From Bacteroidota bacterium (GTDB lineage Bacteria > Bacteroidota > Bacteroidia > Chitinophagales > Saprospiraceae): DNA of 38,310 nt. Positions 29,309-37,808 of the stretch are shown here, one piece after another. The notes under the pieces were generated by a model. The model saw only the letters and a list, made by a program, of their open reading frames with translations, did no database searches and was not told the DNA's origin. The DNA is taken from the NCBI GenBank assembly GCA_024642705.1, contig JAHEAQ010000051.1:1-38310 (forward strand), read 5' to 3'. The position numbers were made by a program, and so were the translations under genes. Within the stretch, counting starts at the first letter, position 1. Each line of letters begins with the position of its first letter.

Positions 29309-30625
29309 ATGAAAAAGAAATTGACTAATTCAGAAGAACTCTTTGAAAGGAGAAAAAATGCTGTGGCCAATGGGGTAGGTGTTTTTAATACAGCTACTGT
29401 GCACAAGGCAAAAGGTGCAATCATAACCGATGTTGATGGTCGTGAATTGATAGATTTCTCAGGAGGGATTGGTGTAGTGAACGCTGGCCATTGTCCTGAA
29501 CCAGTGGTCGAAGCAATACGTGAGCAAGCTGGCAAATATTTGCATACCAGTTTTAATGTGGTCACATATGAACCTTACATTGATTTATGTGAACAACTCA
29601 TAGAAATTTTACCACACGGTGACAAGACTAAGGTCATGTTAGTAAGTACTGGAGCAGAAGCAGTAGAAAACGCAATCAAAATTGCAAGGCAAGCCACTAA
29701 AAGGTCTGCGATTCTTTGTTTTACAGATGCTTATCATGGTCGTACTATGATGGCCATGACTTTGACCAGCAAAATAAGTTACAAATATGATTGTGGGCCT
29801 TATGCTCCTGAAATATATAGACTTCCTTTCCCAAATTTTTATAGATATCGGCGTAATAGGGATATGGATGAATTTGTAAAGGATGAACTTAAACGACTTC
29901 ATGAGAGTGCCCTAAATCTTGTAGATGTAAAAAATGTAGCTGCGATAATTATAGAACCAATCCAAGGCGAGGGTGGTTTCAACCCAGCGCCTCAAAAATA
30001 CCTAGAAGGCTTGCGACAATTTTGTGACCAACATGGCATTATGCTGATAATGGACGAAGTTCAAAGCGGGTTTTGTAGAACTGGACATTGGGCAAGTTGG
30101 CAACATTATGGGGTGCAACCAGATATTAGTACTTATGCCAAATCTTTAGGTTCAGGTTTACCAATTGCCGCTGTAGTTGGTAAAGCAGAAGTTATGGATG
30201 CTGCGGCTATTGGTTCCATTGGTGGAACGTATATTGGCAGTCCTATCTGTTGTGTTGCTGCATCAGCAACCATCCAATACATGAAAGATATCAACTTGAA
30301 TGAAAAAGCAGTCAAAGTTGGCAATATCATAAGAAGCAGGTTACAAAATTTAATGAAACAGCATGCAGAGATTGGAGATGTAAGAGGAATTGGTGCCATG
30401 ATTGCAATTGAATTTGTAAATGATGGTGATCCAAGCCAACCAAATTCTGAAATTTGTCCGCAAATAGTAAAAGGGTGTGTAGAAAACGGATTGATAGTAT
30501 TAAGTGCCGGAACCTATAAAAATGTGTTACGTATTTTATCCCCGTTAGTTATTACTGAAGAACAATTAGAAAAAGGATTATCCATCTTGGAATCCGAAAT
30601 TGAAAAAGCAATACAAAATATATGA
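29309..30625 (+). CDS. Class III PLP aminotransferase, GabT-like
   Basis: Omega-amino-acid aminotransferase of the 4-aminobutyrate/5-aminovalerate type: it moves a terminal amine to 2-oxoglutarate, leaving a semialdehyde. STGAEAVENAIKIAR (113-127), EPIQGEGGF (216-224), DEVQSGFCRTG (249-259) and the PLP lysine Lys278 in TYAKSLGSGLPI are present, followed by GGTYIGSPI. I start it at the ATG at 29309, which matches the E. coli GabT N-terminus (LFERRKNAVANGVG); an upstream TTG at 29249 adds 20 unlikely residues. Length is 438 residues. Its stop overlaps the C-N hydrolase start by four bases (ATGA). In this cluster it could act on a free or amide-protected diamine, on the resulting omega-amino acid, or on both. 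Confidence 0.92.
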   Translation: MKKKLTNSEELFERRKNAVANGVGVFNTATVHKAKGAIITDVDGRELIDFSGGIGVVNAGHCPEPVVEAIREQAGKYLHTSFNVVTYEPYIDLCEQLIEILPHGDKTKVMLVSTGAEAVENAIKIARQATKRSAILCFTDAYHGRTMMAMTLTSKISYKYDCGPYAPEIYRLPFPNFYRYRRNRDMDEFVKDELKRLHESALNLVDVKNVAAIIIEPIQGEGGFNPAPQKYLEGLRQFCDQHGIMLIMDEVQSGFCRTGHWASWQHYGVQPDISTYAKSLGSGLPIAAVVGKAEVMDAAAIGSIGGTYIGSPICCVAASATIQYMKDINLNEKAVKVGNIIRSRLQNLMKQHAEIGDVRGIGAMIAIEFVNDGDPSQPNSEICPQIVKGCVENGLIVLSAGTYKNVLRILSPLVITEEQLEKGLSILESEIEKAIQNI

Positions 30626-31548
30626 GACCATTCGCAATTGCAGGAATACAAATGAAAGTATCAGCCGTCGCTTCAAACGTTGAAATGATGAAGCTAAAAA
30701 TTGATATAACCATGAATCTCTATCCCTGGATAGAAATGATAATGTTTAGTGAATTGTGTGCTTTTGGGCCACTCACATACACTGCCCAAGAAATACCAAA
30801 CAATTTTGAAGCAGAAATGCAAGCTATGGCAAAAAAATATGGTATTTGGCTACTTCCTGGATCTATCTTTGAAAAGAAAGAGGACAAAATTTACAATACC
30901 GCCACAGTAATTAATCCTAAAGGTGAGATCGTAACAAGATACAGAAAAATGTTTCCTTTTTATCCCTATGAGGTTGGAGTAACTCCGGGGCAAGATTATT
31001 GTGTTTTTGATGTTCCAGGAGTTGCAAAGTTTGGTGTTTCCATATGTTATGACATGTGGTTTCCAGAAACCATAAGAACTCTTGCAGTGATGGGAGCTGA
31101 AGTTATTATGCATCCTACTATGTCGGGGACAATAGATCGAGATATAGAACTTTCCATTGTGAGAGCAATGGCATCCATTAATCAGTGTTATTTCTTTGAT
31201 GTCAATGGTCTGGATACAGGAGGATGTGGGAGATCTATTGTTTGCGGACCTGATGGTCGAGTATTACATCAATCGGAAGGAACGGAAGAGATTATCCCAC
31301 TAGAATTAAATATAGAACGCGTTAAAAGAAGTCGTGAAATGGGAATATTGCGTCTTGGCCAACCCTTGAAAAGTTTTCGAGATCATATAGGAGGATTTGG
31401 AATTTACCAGGATGGTGCCTCTAAACCATATTTAGATTCATTAGGTCCATTAATTAAACCTACACGATTAGACAAATTGACAGAATTAAAAATAAAAGAA
31501 ACTACTTTAGAAAAACCTAGCGAAACAATACATTTCAAGGGTGAATAA
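30622..31548 (+). CDS. Nitrilase-superfamily carbon-nitrogen hydrolase (amidase)
   Basis: Cytoplasmic amidase of 308 residues with the full Glu-Lys-Cys triad: Glu44 in MFSELCAFG, Lys109 in TRYRKMFPFYPYE, Cys142 in VSICYDMWFPET. The YPYEVGVTPG stretch after the lysine recalls the aliphatic amidase/formamidase side of the superfamily, while N-carbamoylputrescine amidases are another possible relative. It is translationally coupled to the aminotransferase (ATGA overlap), so the two steps are probably linked. The most economical role here is to hydrolyse an amide made by the ATP-grasp enzyme, but this is inferred. No agmatine deiminase is nearby to supply N-carbamoylputrescine. Confidence 0.87.
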   Translation: MRPFAIAGIQMKVSAVASNVEMMKLKIDITMNLYPWIEMIMFSELCAFGPLTYTAQEIPNNFEAEMQAMAKKYGIWLLPGSIFEKKEDKIYNTATVINPKGEIVTRYRKMFPFYPYEVGVTPGQDYCVFDVPGVAKFGVSICYDMWFPETIRTLAVMGAEVIMHPTMSGTIDRDIELSIVRAMASINQCYFFDVNGLDTGGCGRSIVCGPDGRVLHQSEGTEEIIPLELNIERVKRSREMGILRLGQPLKSFRDHIGGFGIYQDGASKPYLDSLGPLIKPTRLDKLTELKIKETTLEKPSETIHFKGE

Positions 31549-31569
31549 ATAAACTAAAAAATATATAAA

Positions 31570-36429: not shown

Positions 36430-36449
36430 TTAATTAAGTAAAATTAAAT

Positions 36450-37808
36450 ATGGAATTTAAGAGTATTAATCCTTACAATGGGAATACCATTGGAACTTAC
36501 AAATCTCTCTCAGAAGCAGAATTGTTTGACAAATTAGATAGAAGTCAAGCTGCATTCAAATCTTGGAGAAAAGTTCCAATTTCAGAAAGATGTAGCCTAA
36601 TTAAAAAAGCAGGACAGGTGTTGCGTGATAATTTAGAGGAATATTCCAAAATGATCACTCTAGAGATGGGCAAACCTATTTCAGAGTCCCGCGGGGAAGT
36701 AAATAAATGCGCTTGGGTTTGTGATTATTATGCTGAAAATTCTATAGCTTTTTTAAACGATGAAATTATTAGTACGGATGCAGCACAAAGTTTTGTAAGA
36801 CATGATCCTATTGGGGCTGTTCTAGCAATCATGCCTTGGAATTTTCCTTTTTGGCAAGTTTTCAGATATGCTGCTCCTACATTAACTGCTGGAAATACTG
36901 GCTTATTAAAACATGCTCCAAATGTTTTTGGTTGTGCCAAACAAATAGAAGATGTATTCAAAAAAGCGGGATTTCCAAAAGATGTTTTCCAAAATCTTAT
37001 AGTACATCATGAACAGACAGAAAAAATAATTGCTCATGATGCCGTTCAAGCGGTCACCTTAACAGGAAGTGAACGTGCTGGTTCAGCAGTTGCTGAAATT
37101 GCAGGAAGATATATTAAAAAAACAGTTTTGGAACTTGGCGGAAACAATGCATTCATTGTATTGGAAGATGCAGATATTGATAATGCTGTTAAAACAGCGA
37201 TTACTGCTCGAATGCTTAATTGTGGTCAAAGCTGTATTGCAGCAAAACGATTCATATTGGCAGAAAAAATTTACGATGAGTTTGTCGCAAAATTCACTTC
37301 TGCCGTAAATGAATTAAAATCAGGAAATCCTTTAGAAGAAGACACAAAAGTAGGTCCATTGGCAAGGAAAGATTTGGCAGATCAATTGAACAGTCAAGTG
37401 AAAGAATCAGTAAAACTTGGCGCAGAATTGCTACTAGGTGGACAACAAAATATTTGTTATCACGAACCTACGATTCTTGGAAACGTATTGCCCGGAATGC
37501 CAGCATTTGATGAAGAAACTTTTGGACCACTAGCATCGATGATCAAAGCTAAAAGTATTGAACATGCTTTTGACCTTTCTGAACAATCCAAATACGGTCT
37601 AGGAGTTACAGTGTGCACCAAGAATATTGAAAAGGCTTTAAAATATGCTGAATTTGTTAGTGATGGGGCATATTTTATCAATGAATTGGTAAAATCAGAT
37701 CCAAGATTACCTTTTGGGGGCACCAAAAAATCCGGTTATGGCCGCGAATTGGCAAAAGATGGAATCCTTGAATTTGTCAATAGAAAAACTATTTATGTAA
37801 AAAACTGA
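36450..37808 (+). CDS. NAD(P)-dependent aldehyde dehydrogenase, succinate-semialdehyde type
   Basis: Aldehyde dehydrogenase of 452 residues, close in layout to short Sad/GabD succinate-semialdehyde dehydrogenases. Key residues: Asn131 in MPWNFPFW, Lys154 in GLLKHAPN, cofactor loop LTGSERAG (204-211), general base Glu228 in LELGGNN and nucleophile Cys262 in NCGQSCIAAKRF. All catalytic residues are present. It is the last gene of the cluster, 20 bases after the ATP-grasp gene. It could oxidise the amino-aldehyde made by the aminotransferase, and also the final succinate or glutarate semialdehyde; which applies is not shown. After its stop come 229 bases with no gene before the edge gene on the other strand. 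Confidence 0.93.
   Translation: MEFKSINPYNGNTIGTYKSLSEAELFDKLDRSQAAFKSWRKVPISERCSLIKKAGQVLRDNLEEYSKMITLEMGKPISESRGEVNKCAWVCDYYAENSIAFLNDEIISTDAAQSFVRHDPIGAVLAIMPWNFPFWQVFRYAAPTLTAGNTGLLKHAPNVFGCAKQIEDVFKKAGFPKDVFQNLIVHHEQTEKIIAHDAVQAVTLTGSERAGSAVAEIAGRYIKKTVLELGGNNAFIVLEDADIDNAVKTAITARMLNCGQSCIAAKRFILAEKIYDEFVAKFTSAVNELKSGNPLEEDTKVGPLARKDLADQLNSQVKESVKLGAELLLGGQQNICYHEPTILGNVLPGMPAFDEETFGPLASMIKAKSIEHAFDLSEQSKYGLGVTVCTKNIEKALKYAEFVSDGAYFINELVKSDPRLPFGGTKKSGYGRELAKDGILEFVNRKTIYVKN

What the first reader, a model, noticed from the sequence alone, without database searches (positions are those of the whole stretch)
29309..37808. Candidate amide-protected diamine pathway built from non-Puu enzyme families
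Seen: six plus-strand genes, a GabT-like aminotransferase, nitrilase-fold amidase, VOC protein, Orn/Lys/Arg decarboxylase, lone ATP-grasp ligase and semialdehyde-type dehydrogenase, with gaps of 20-124 bases and one ATGA overlap. Known: the E. coli Puu pathway protects putrescine as a gamma-glutamyl amide (PuuA, glutamine-synthetase fold), oxidises it (PuuB oxidase, PuuC dehydrogenase), then releases GABA (PuuD). Inferred: here an ATP-grasp enzyme replaces PuuA, an aminotransferase replaces PuuB and a nitrilase-fold amidase replaces PuuD, with a dedicated decarboxylase making the diamine from Lys, Orn or Arg. One aminotransferase and one dehydrogenase could serve both ends, giving succinate or glutarate. 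I know of no named pathway with this exact set.
Basis: partly seen in the sequence, partly recalled or inferred. Interest (0 to 1): 0.8.

Follow-up and report, generated by a model that had tools for sequence, protein, structure and literature searches.

The report
Conserved six-gene amide and GABA operon
Scattered bacteria carry the same small gene set, probably for turning an amino acid into a GABA-like compound, tying it into an amide with ATP and breaking it down again; I found no name for the set, and it may give a job to an enzyme family whose activity is unsettled.

Summary
In detail: six plus-strand genes (29309-37808), with the stated gaps and one ATGA overlap. They form a real, probably transferred operon. 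In the 80 nearest relatives (of 467 found) the decarboxylase accompanies the ATP-grasp gene in 68 of 68 loci with enough sequence, amidase and aminotransferase in 60 of 64.

The diamine reading is weakened. The decarboxylase belongs to the Rv2531c family, of unsettled activity. In 82 of 82 rows the glutamate of lysine/ornithine decarboxylases (CadA Glu526) is Asn. A side clade stands beside aspartate:alanine antiporter genes (5 of 5 loci read). Three proteobacterial plasmids hold the ATP-grasp, C45 and CN-hydrolase genes in an arginine-catabolic operon without this decarboxylase.

Best reading (0.35): an acidic amino acid, probably glutamate, is decarboxylated to GABA; the ATP-grasp enzyme joins it to an unknown partner; CN-hydrolase and C45 cleave the amide; aminotransferase and dehydrogenase finish to succinate. 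This parallels carnosine metabolism more than the Puu pathway. No substrate was tested. The database name 'biotin carboxylase' is probably wrong.

The parts
29309..30625 (+). class III aminotransferase, GABA-transaminase-like
   Evidence: Aminotran_3 411 bits; best NCBIfam scores are GABA transaminases, below cut-off
30622..31548 (+). CN-hydrolase (nitrilase superfamily) amidase
   Evidence: PF00795 107.6 bits; Glu44, Lys109, Glu117, Cys142 in 67 of 67 rows; ATGA overlap with the gene before
31570..31980 (+). small VOC/glyoxalase-fold protein, accessory
   Evidence: PF00903 below cut-off for the window protein, above it in 4 of 8 orthologues scanned; in 50 of 64 testable loci
32105..34864 (+). 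long PLP decarboxylase, Rv2531c family, OKR fold
   Evidence: PF01276 261.7 bits; 788.5 bits to PDB 9n0n over residues 18-903; PLP-site residues kept, the CadA Glu526 position is Asn729
34885..36429 (+). ATP-grasp enzyme (NF005096), probable carboxylate-amine ligase
   Evidence: 792 bits; AlphaFold model mean pLDDT 88.2; Foldseek best matches are biotin carboxylase folds, then PurK and GAR synthetase
36450..37808 (+). aldehyde dehydrogenase, succinate-semialdehyde-type
   Evidence: Aldedh 435.8 bits; nearest NCBIfam models are SSADH, below cut-off

Best explanation
A GABA-centred amide module. The long decarboxylase removes CO2 from an acidic amino acid, most likely glutamate, giving GABA (inferred). 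The ATP-grasp enzyme uses ATP to join GABA, or a close omega-amino acid, to a partner, making a pseudo-dipeptide or other amide (inferred). The CN-hydrolase, and in most relatives a C45 NTN enzyme, cleave that amide or move its acyl group (inferred from families and conserved catalytic residues). The GabT-like aminotransferase and the SSADH-like dehydrogenase take released GABA through succinate semialdehyde to succinate (family-level inference). Shown here: the gene set, its linkage, intact catalytic residues of decarboxylase, CN-hydrolase and C45, and family-wide changes at positions of the decarboxylase that include a postulated substrate ligand. Not shown: any substrate, product or direction.
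For: Linkage: decarboxylase with the ATP-grasp gene in 68 of 68 testable loci; of 395 genomes drawn from the phylum 7 carry the ATP-grasp family and 8 the decarboxylase, the 7 among the 8; the eighth lies at a contig end next to VOC, CN-hydrolase and aminotransferase. Pocket: CadA Glu526 -> Asn, Val524 -> Gln, Ser373 -> Arg, Gly154 -> Arg and Glu663 -> Gln, each in 82 of 82 rows, a shift from acidic towards basic or neutral. Neighbours: the side clade directly precedes aspT on the same strand in 5 of 5 loci read, of 15 records in that clade; one of these aspT genes passes the equivalog (561.7 over 546.95). GABA: a protein passing the SSADH model stands in the dehydrogenase slot of L030, and a gene passing the GABA transaminase model lies in the Roseobacter locus, not adjacent. 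In Shinella, Roseateles XES5 and Sinorhizobium RAC02 the ATP-grasp and C45 genes sit in an operon with a 2-ketoarginine decarboxylase (737 bits over 500 in Shinella) and, by annotation in the first two, agmatinase, whose expected end is GABA. Glutamate dehydrogenase genes lie upstream and divergent in three rhizobial loci (L128, L129, L132) and about 5 kb upstream on the same strand in the fourth (L131). None of 16 chosen cluster-bearing genomes has a glutamate decarboxylase over the TIGR01788 cut-off (10 have weaker matches; in the control 3 of 14 genomes pass).
Against: No activity is known to me for any of the unusual proteins. The nearest characterised relatives of the decarboxylase by sequence are lysine and arginine decarboxylases, and E. 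coli AdiA has Thr, not Glu, at the 526 position, so arginine is not excluded. The aspT clade is a derived long branch (1.36), so its substrate may differ. Whether Arg575 and Arg319 reach the substrate was not checked on coordinates. The missing glutamate decarboxylase has no base rate. Making and breaking an amide in one operon, beside GABA breakdown, is unexplained; the partner is unknown. The CN-hydrolase is not universal: none near the gene in 4 of 11 plasmid loci (the rhizobial ones), in L157, nor at E 1e-60 anywhere in 3 of 11 genomes tested. Dehydrogenases of the window or L030 type are in only 38 of 71 testable loci. The agmatinase-family protein of Shinella scores as agmatinase; guanidinobutyrate as its substrate is inferred.
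Confidence: 0.35

Rival explanations
1. One reading: the decarboxylase makes a diamine, the ATP-grasp enzyme acylates it, aminotransferase and dehydrogenase oxidise the free end, the amidase releases an omega-amino acid that the same two enzymes oxidise.
For: All steps have an enzyme in the operon; decarboxylase and ATP-grasp genes together in 68 of 68 testable loci; OKR fold.
Against: Glu526 of CadA and SpeF is Asn in 82 of 82 rows; aspT neighbours of the side clade; ATP-grasp, CN-hydrolase and C45 occur in an operon that would reach GABA without a diamine.
Confidence: 0.2
2. Butirosin-like order (BtrJ/BtrK, recalled): the ATP-grasp enzyme first makes a gamma-glutamyl amide, the decarboxylase acts on the gamma-glutamyl group to give a GABA amide, and CN-hydrolase or C45 releases GABA.
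For: Decarboxylase and ATP-grasp can be the minimal pair (VOC, decarboxylase and ATP-grasp only in L109 and L115); an Asn in place of Glu suits an amide end (inference).
Against: The decarboxylase also occurs without a neighbouring ATP-grasp gene, beside antiporters; ATP-grasp without adjacent decarboxylase in 4 of 11 plasmid loci.
Confidence: 0.12
3. Arginine route: the decarboxylase is an arginine decarboxylase giving agmatine; aminotransferase and dehydrogenase give 4-guanidinobutyrate; the other enzymes free GABA.
For: The highest-scoring solved relative outside the family is named biodegradative arginine decarboxylase (6q6i, 207.5 bits); an arginine-type operon holds the ATP-grasp, C45 and CN-hydrolase genes in three plasmids.
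Against: I recall 6q6i to be a lysine decarboxylase (LdcA) in fact, and the other arginine decarboxylases score below lysine decarboxylases (2vyc 144, 3n75 165.5). No ureohydrolase or deiminase in the window operon. SpeA-type matches exist in 16 of 16 cluster genomes tested, 2 over cut-off. In M. tuberculosis a section heading says the homologue is not crucial for growth on arginine (PMC4569260, one passage).
Confidence: 0.11
4. Bicarbonate chemistry: the ATP-grasp enzyme carboxylates an amine or urea-like nitrogen, and the amidases remove the product.
For: Closest folds are biotin carboxylase, then PurK; passes a model named biotin carboxylase.
Against: The R-I-Q-V-E-H stretch of 2-oxoglutarate and pyruvate carboxylases aligns with R-V-T-G-A-S here (weak local alignments of 0.7 and 9.7 bits, anchored by the shared N-x-R), losing residues that I recall as bicarbonate/biotin ligands; no biotin carrier or carboxyltransferase gene in the operon. 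GAR synthetase, a carboxylate-amine ligase, has a similar TM-score (0.56, rank 28).
Confidence: 0.07

Closest known systems
Rv2531c decarboxylase (PDB 9n0n, 9n0o, 9n0p)
   Same: Same long architecture, 788.5 bits over residues 18-903; Q-x-N and R-Q visible at the same places in the HMMER alignment
   Different: Its gene neighbourhood was not examined here; its activity was not clarified (PMC12910592, passages)
Puu putrescine pathway of E. coli (recalled)
   Same: ATP-driven amide formation, oxidation, amide cleavage, GABA to succinate would be the same logic
   Different: ATP-grasp not glutamine-synthetase fold, CN-hydrolase/C45 not PuuD, aminotransferase not PuuB; diamine substrate doubtful
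Carnosine/homocarnosine metabolism: GADL1, CARNS1, carnosinase, GABA transaminase (starts of abstracts PMC7367687, PMC8300356, PMC6271292 in listings; rest recalled)
   Same: PLP decarboxylase making an omega-amino acid, ATP-grasp ligase joining it, hydrolase and transaminase
   Different: Other subfamilies as far as named here; partner unknown; bacterial operon; membership not tested
AspT/AspD decarboxylation-antiport systems (recalled)
   Same: A side clade of the decarboxylase lies beside aspT
   Different: The window operon has no antiporter

Membership tests
Orn/Lys/Arg (OKR) decarboxylase family | PF01276 domain and PLP residues (CadA His245, Asp330, Trp333, Ser364, Lys367) | tested here: met
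   261.7 bits over cut-off 27; 82 of 82 rows keep all five
Lysine or ornithine decarboxylase | Glu526-type residue, postulated to bind the substrate (PMC5607190, passages) | tested here: not met
   Asn in 82 of 82; Glu in CadA and SpeF, Thr in AdiA
Rv2531c subfamily | Full-length similarity including the long N-terminal part | tested here: met
   18-903 of 919 aligned to 20-905 of 947
Biotin carboxylase | NF005096 equivalog score | tested here: met
   792.4 over 684
Biotin carboxylase | R-x-Q-V-E bicarbonate/biotin motif (function recalled) | tested here: not met
   Aligned with R-V-T-G-A in weak local alignments; the Gly is invariant in 63 rows (G312 of the trimmed sequence)
Biotin carboxylase | Biotin carrier and carboxyltransferase partner | tested here: inconclusive
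   None among the operon genes; the rest of the genome was not searched
Puu pathway | PuuA glutamine-synthetase fold, PuuB oxidase, PuuD class I amidotransferase fold (recalled) | tested here: not met
   Operon Pfam content
Nitrilase superfamily | Glu-Lys-Cys triad | tested here: met
   Glu44, Lys109, Cys142 in 67 of 67 rows
C45 NTN hydrolase | NF040521/PF03417 and nucleophile Cys | tested here: met
   In relatives only: NF040521 170.2 over 85 for L031, PF03417 in six relatives, Cys91 in 64 of 64 rows; no such gene in the window operon
GABA transaminase | TIGR00700 cut-off | tested here: not met
   480.9 of 506.65; met by the Roseobacter gabT
Succinate-semialdehyde dehydrogenase | Curated cut-off | tested here: not met
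   PRK09406 508.9 of 730, TIGR01780 330 of 646.35; TIGR01780 met by the L030 enzyme
Carnosine-type ligase | ATP-dependent joining of an omega-amino acid to an amine | not testable with these tools
   Needs an enzyme assay

The most novel reading that the evidence does not exclude
A widespread bacterial pathway that makes and recycles a GABA (or beta-alanine) pseudo-dipeptide, built on an OKR-fold decarboxylase that has switched from basic to acidic amino acids; it would give a function to the Rv2531c family and be a bacterial counterpart of carnosine metabolism.
Probability: 0.22. Interest if true: 0.8.

Novelty: new variant of a known kind. Interest (0 to 1): 0.58.

Why it matters
The operon ties three poorly understood families together: Rv2531c-type decarboxylases, the ATP-grasp family named biotin carboxylase, and a C45 subfamily. 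Knowing one substrate would predict the others, could correct a name given by a curated cut-off, and would suggest what the tuberculosis homologue does. If the decarboxylase takes acidic amino acids, the OKR fold has evolved glutamate or aspartate decarboxylation; I do not recall this being described and did not search the literature for that point alone.

Tried and rejected
First structure job (8 rows, 72-77% identical to the window protein) gave a useless model, pLDDT 42.8; the second with 63 rows worked.

Literature: '9n0n' found only an unrelated paper. ATP-grasp, decarboxylase, 5-aminovaleramide, two of three: 96 papers, 20 listed, none by title or abstract start about this operon. Gene-combination searches gave 0 papers; 'PRK06524' 0; AspT, antiporter, decarboxylase, Sinorhizobium 0. 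'Rv2531c' gave 7 papers, of which I read passages of two. Homocarnosine, bacteria, ATP-grasp, GABA gave 6, by listing none about a bacterial pathway. The cryo-EM paper on Rv2531c is not held. The library is open-licence papers only.

Considered and put low: biotin carboxylase activity; citrulline decarboxylation followed by an AguB-like amidase (CN-hydrolase 82.2 of 410.25 for AguB; the ATP-grasp gene would be left over). SpeA-type arginine decarboxylase is over cut-off in 2 of 16 cluster genomes, weaker matches in all 16, so this did not discriminate.

Caveats on counts: the 80 loci are the best of 467 and favour conservation. L090 and L030 are evidently the same contig (both 133442 bases, overlapping ranges), so one genome is in both sets. 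L096, L145 and L150 are one genome. The decarboxylase alignment took 65 of the 80 loci (whole ORFs of 881-959 aa), the window and 16 others; L033, L036 and the plasmid loci L128, L132, L134 were left out, and rows from L030 and L090 may be duplicates. The C45 count held one row in the wrong frame (L136) and is replaced. In one search three of 80 loci (L096, L100, L108) showed no ATP-grasp ORF because of overlapping ORFs; one search used tblastn instead. Only 11 of 32 plasmid records with an ATP-grasp match were read. The tree (36 family rows and 3 E. coli enzymes) has long outgroup branches and an unsettled bootstrap; only the unity and length of the aspT branch are used. On checking I lowered the arginine rival from 0.13 to 0.11, because the best-scoring 'arginine decarboxylase' is, as I recall, a lysine decarboxylase.
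Full report
Observation. Families: class III aminotransferase, CN-hydrolase, weak VOC, OKR decarboxylase, ATP-grasp, aldehyde dehydrogenase. The window is a whole contig (G000 C64, 38310 bases).

Is the cluster real? Yes. Among 60 genomes searched (the window's own and 59 relatives) 33 have some match at E 0.001, but apart from the window only one, G032 of the same family, has a strong one (76% identical, E 9e-259); the rest are E 2e-7 or weaker, and the two same-genus genomes lack it. 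Of 395 genomes drawn from the phylum, the window's included, 7 have the ATP-grasp family and 8 the decarboxylase. The 7 are among the 8; in the eighth the decarboxylase is cut by a contig end but has VOC, CN-hydrolase and aminotransferase beside it. In the control, 0 of 14 well-known genomes carry the ATP-grasp family. Seven loci (L030-L036) all show aminotransferase, CN-hydrolase, decarboxylase, ATP-grasp in that order, with an aldehyde dehydrogenase after (in L030 of another type). Counting only loci with enough flanking sequence: decarboxylase 68 of 68, aminotransferase 60 of 64, CN-hydrolase 60 of 64, VOC 50 of 64, C45 56 of 78, dehydrogenase of window type 37 of 71 and of L030 type 1 of 71. 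All lie on one strand except one C45 gene. CN-hydrolase was sought in 11 whole genomes chosen from the 80: 8 have it, G449 (L109), G450 (L115) and G458 (L084) do not at E 1e-60. In a further phylum draw around G451 (Gemmatimonadota), 3 of 121 genomes carry the ATP-grasp family; one of them, L157, shows decarboxylase, ATP-grasp and C45 without aminotransferase or CN-hydrolase nearby.

A further gene. Between the ATP-grasp and dehydrogenase genes most relatives carry a PF03417/NF040521 C45 protein. Its nucleophile Cys91 and an R-N-Y-D motif are present in 64 of 64 rows. The window operon lacks it; the one PF03417 protein found elsewhere in the genome has no blastp match to the operon type at E 1e-3. 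From memory, C45 enzymes cleave or exchange side-chain amides (isopenicillin N acyltransferase, Drosophila Tan).

Decarboxylase. It is the family of M. tuberculosis Rv2531c, solved as 9n0n/9n0o/9n0p; a 2026 review states that the structure paper did not clarify its activity (PMC12910592, passages). I aligned 82 rows with E. coli CadA, AdiA and SpeF. The five PLP-site residues are kept in 82 of 82. CadA Glu526, postulated to bind lysine (PMC5607190, passages), is Asn in 82 of 82; Val524 is Gln and Ser373 is Arg, each 82 of 82. Gly154 is Arg and Glu663 is Gln in 82 of 82. AdiA has Thr at 526, so arginine is less firmly disfavoured than lysine or ornithine. Whether the new Arg residues face the substrate is inference. 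In a side clade (support 100/100) the gene directly precedes aspartate:alanine antiporter genes in 5 of 5 loci read, of 15 records in that clade. This points to an acidic substrate, at least there.

ATP-grasp enzyme. The second model (63 rows) has mean pLDDT 88.2. Foldseek puts biotin carboxylase folds first, PurK from rank 7 and GAR synthetase from rank 28, with TM-scores of 0.50-0.63 by query length. Profile search of the PDB finds only weak matches, to biotin carboxylases and the like; in weak local alignments (0.7 and 9.7 bits) the R-I-Q-V-E-H stretch is R-V-T-G-A-S here. I conclude that a carboxylate-amine ligase is likelier than a carboxylase, without an assay.

Context outside Bacteroidota. 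Of 32 plasmid records with an ATP-grasp match I read 11 loci. In 7 the decarboxylase is next to it: with CN-hydrolase in Roseobacter, Pseudorhodobacter and Cupriavidus oxalaticus, without one in four rhizobial loci (in L128 the decarboxylase is annotated in two pieces). In 4 it is not: Shinella, Roseateles XES5 and Sinorhizobium RAC02, where ATP-grasp and C45 lie in an operon with 5-guanidino-2-oxopentanoate decarboxylase, aldehyde dehydrogenase, D-amino acid dehydrogenase, racemase and (annotated in the first two) agmatinase, with a CN-hydrolase at the divergent end; and C. necator N-1, where CN-hydrolase, ATP-grasp and C45 follow ABC transporter genes. XES5 has a lone decarboxylase elsewhere on the same plasmid. 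The common metabolite of both arrangements would be GABA; this is inference.

GABA end. In L030 the dehydrogenase slot holds a protein passing the SSADH model, 32% identical to the window type; in the Roseobacter locus a gene passing the GABA transaminase model lies upstream, separated by other genes. Nine of 14 further dehydrogenase-like ORFs were scanned and are of a third type, best but below cut-off as lactaldehyde dehydrogenase. None of 16 chosen cluster genomes has a glutamate decarboxylase over cut-off, 10 have weaker matches; I have no base rate for this.

Verdict. Amide formation and cleavage stay the best general idea, but a free diamine is now the less likely substrate. I favour a GABA amide made from glutamate-derived GABA, at 0.35, with the diamine reading at 0.20.

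Origin. The window cluster is 79-89% identical, gene by gene, to Polaribacter glomeratus, while the neighbouring cysS protein is 54% identical to that genome and 72% to the same-family Saprospiraceae genome (L090), whose ATP-grasp is about 76% identical. A Lewinellaceae genome (L039) is in between: ATP-grasp 86%, cysS 66%. This indicates horizontal transfer of the cluster.

Noticed in passing
window 29309-37808: Cluster proteins match Flavobacteriaceae far better than the host's cysS does, pointing to horizontal acquisition.
   Followed up: partly
L138, L139, L151, L152, L153: Rv2531c-type decarboxylases beside aspT antiporter genes, L152 also with aspD and an HdeA/HdeB chaperone gene: a possible acid-resistance system.
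   Followed up: partly
L066 3271-3729; L037 2814-3521: An Lrp/AsnC-type and a Crp-type regulator gene upstream of the operon in these two loci; none beside the window operon.
   Followed up: no
L110 5841-9879, L113 5791-9841: A 945-948 aa ORF and a 403-404 aa ORF sit between decarboxylase and ATP-grasp; in L110 (scanned) the long one has no family and the other is heptosyltransferase-like, GT9.
   Followed up: no
L083, L087, L093 between decarboxylase and ATP-grasp: A 480-494 aa gene inserted; in L083 (the one scanned) it is an amino acid permease.
   Followed up: no
L132 10004-13684: Two ATP-grasp copies in tandem before the C45 gene in R. leguminosarum CB782.
   Followed up: no
L129 602-4436: A Nif11-type RiPP gene cluster beside the rhizobial decarboxylase locus.
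   Followed up: no
L151 1-1754; L154 3948-5234: Ectoine-utilisation genes and ectB lie near decarboxylase genes without an ATP-grasp neighbour.
   Followed up: no
window 34885-36429: Curated model NF005096 names this family biotin carboxylase, probably wrongly.
   Followed up: partly
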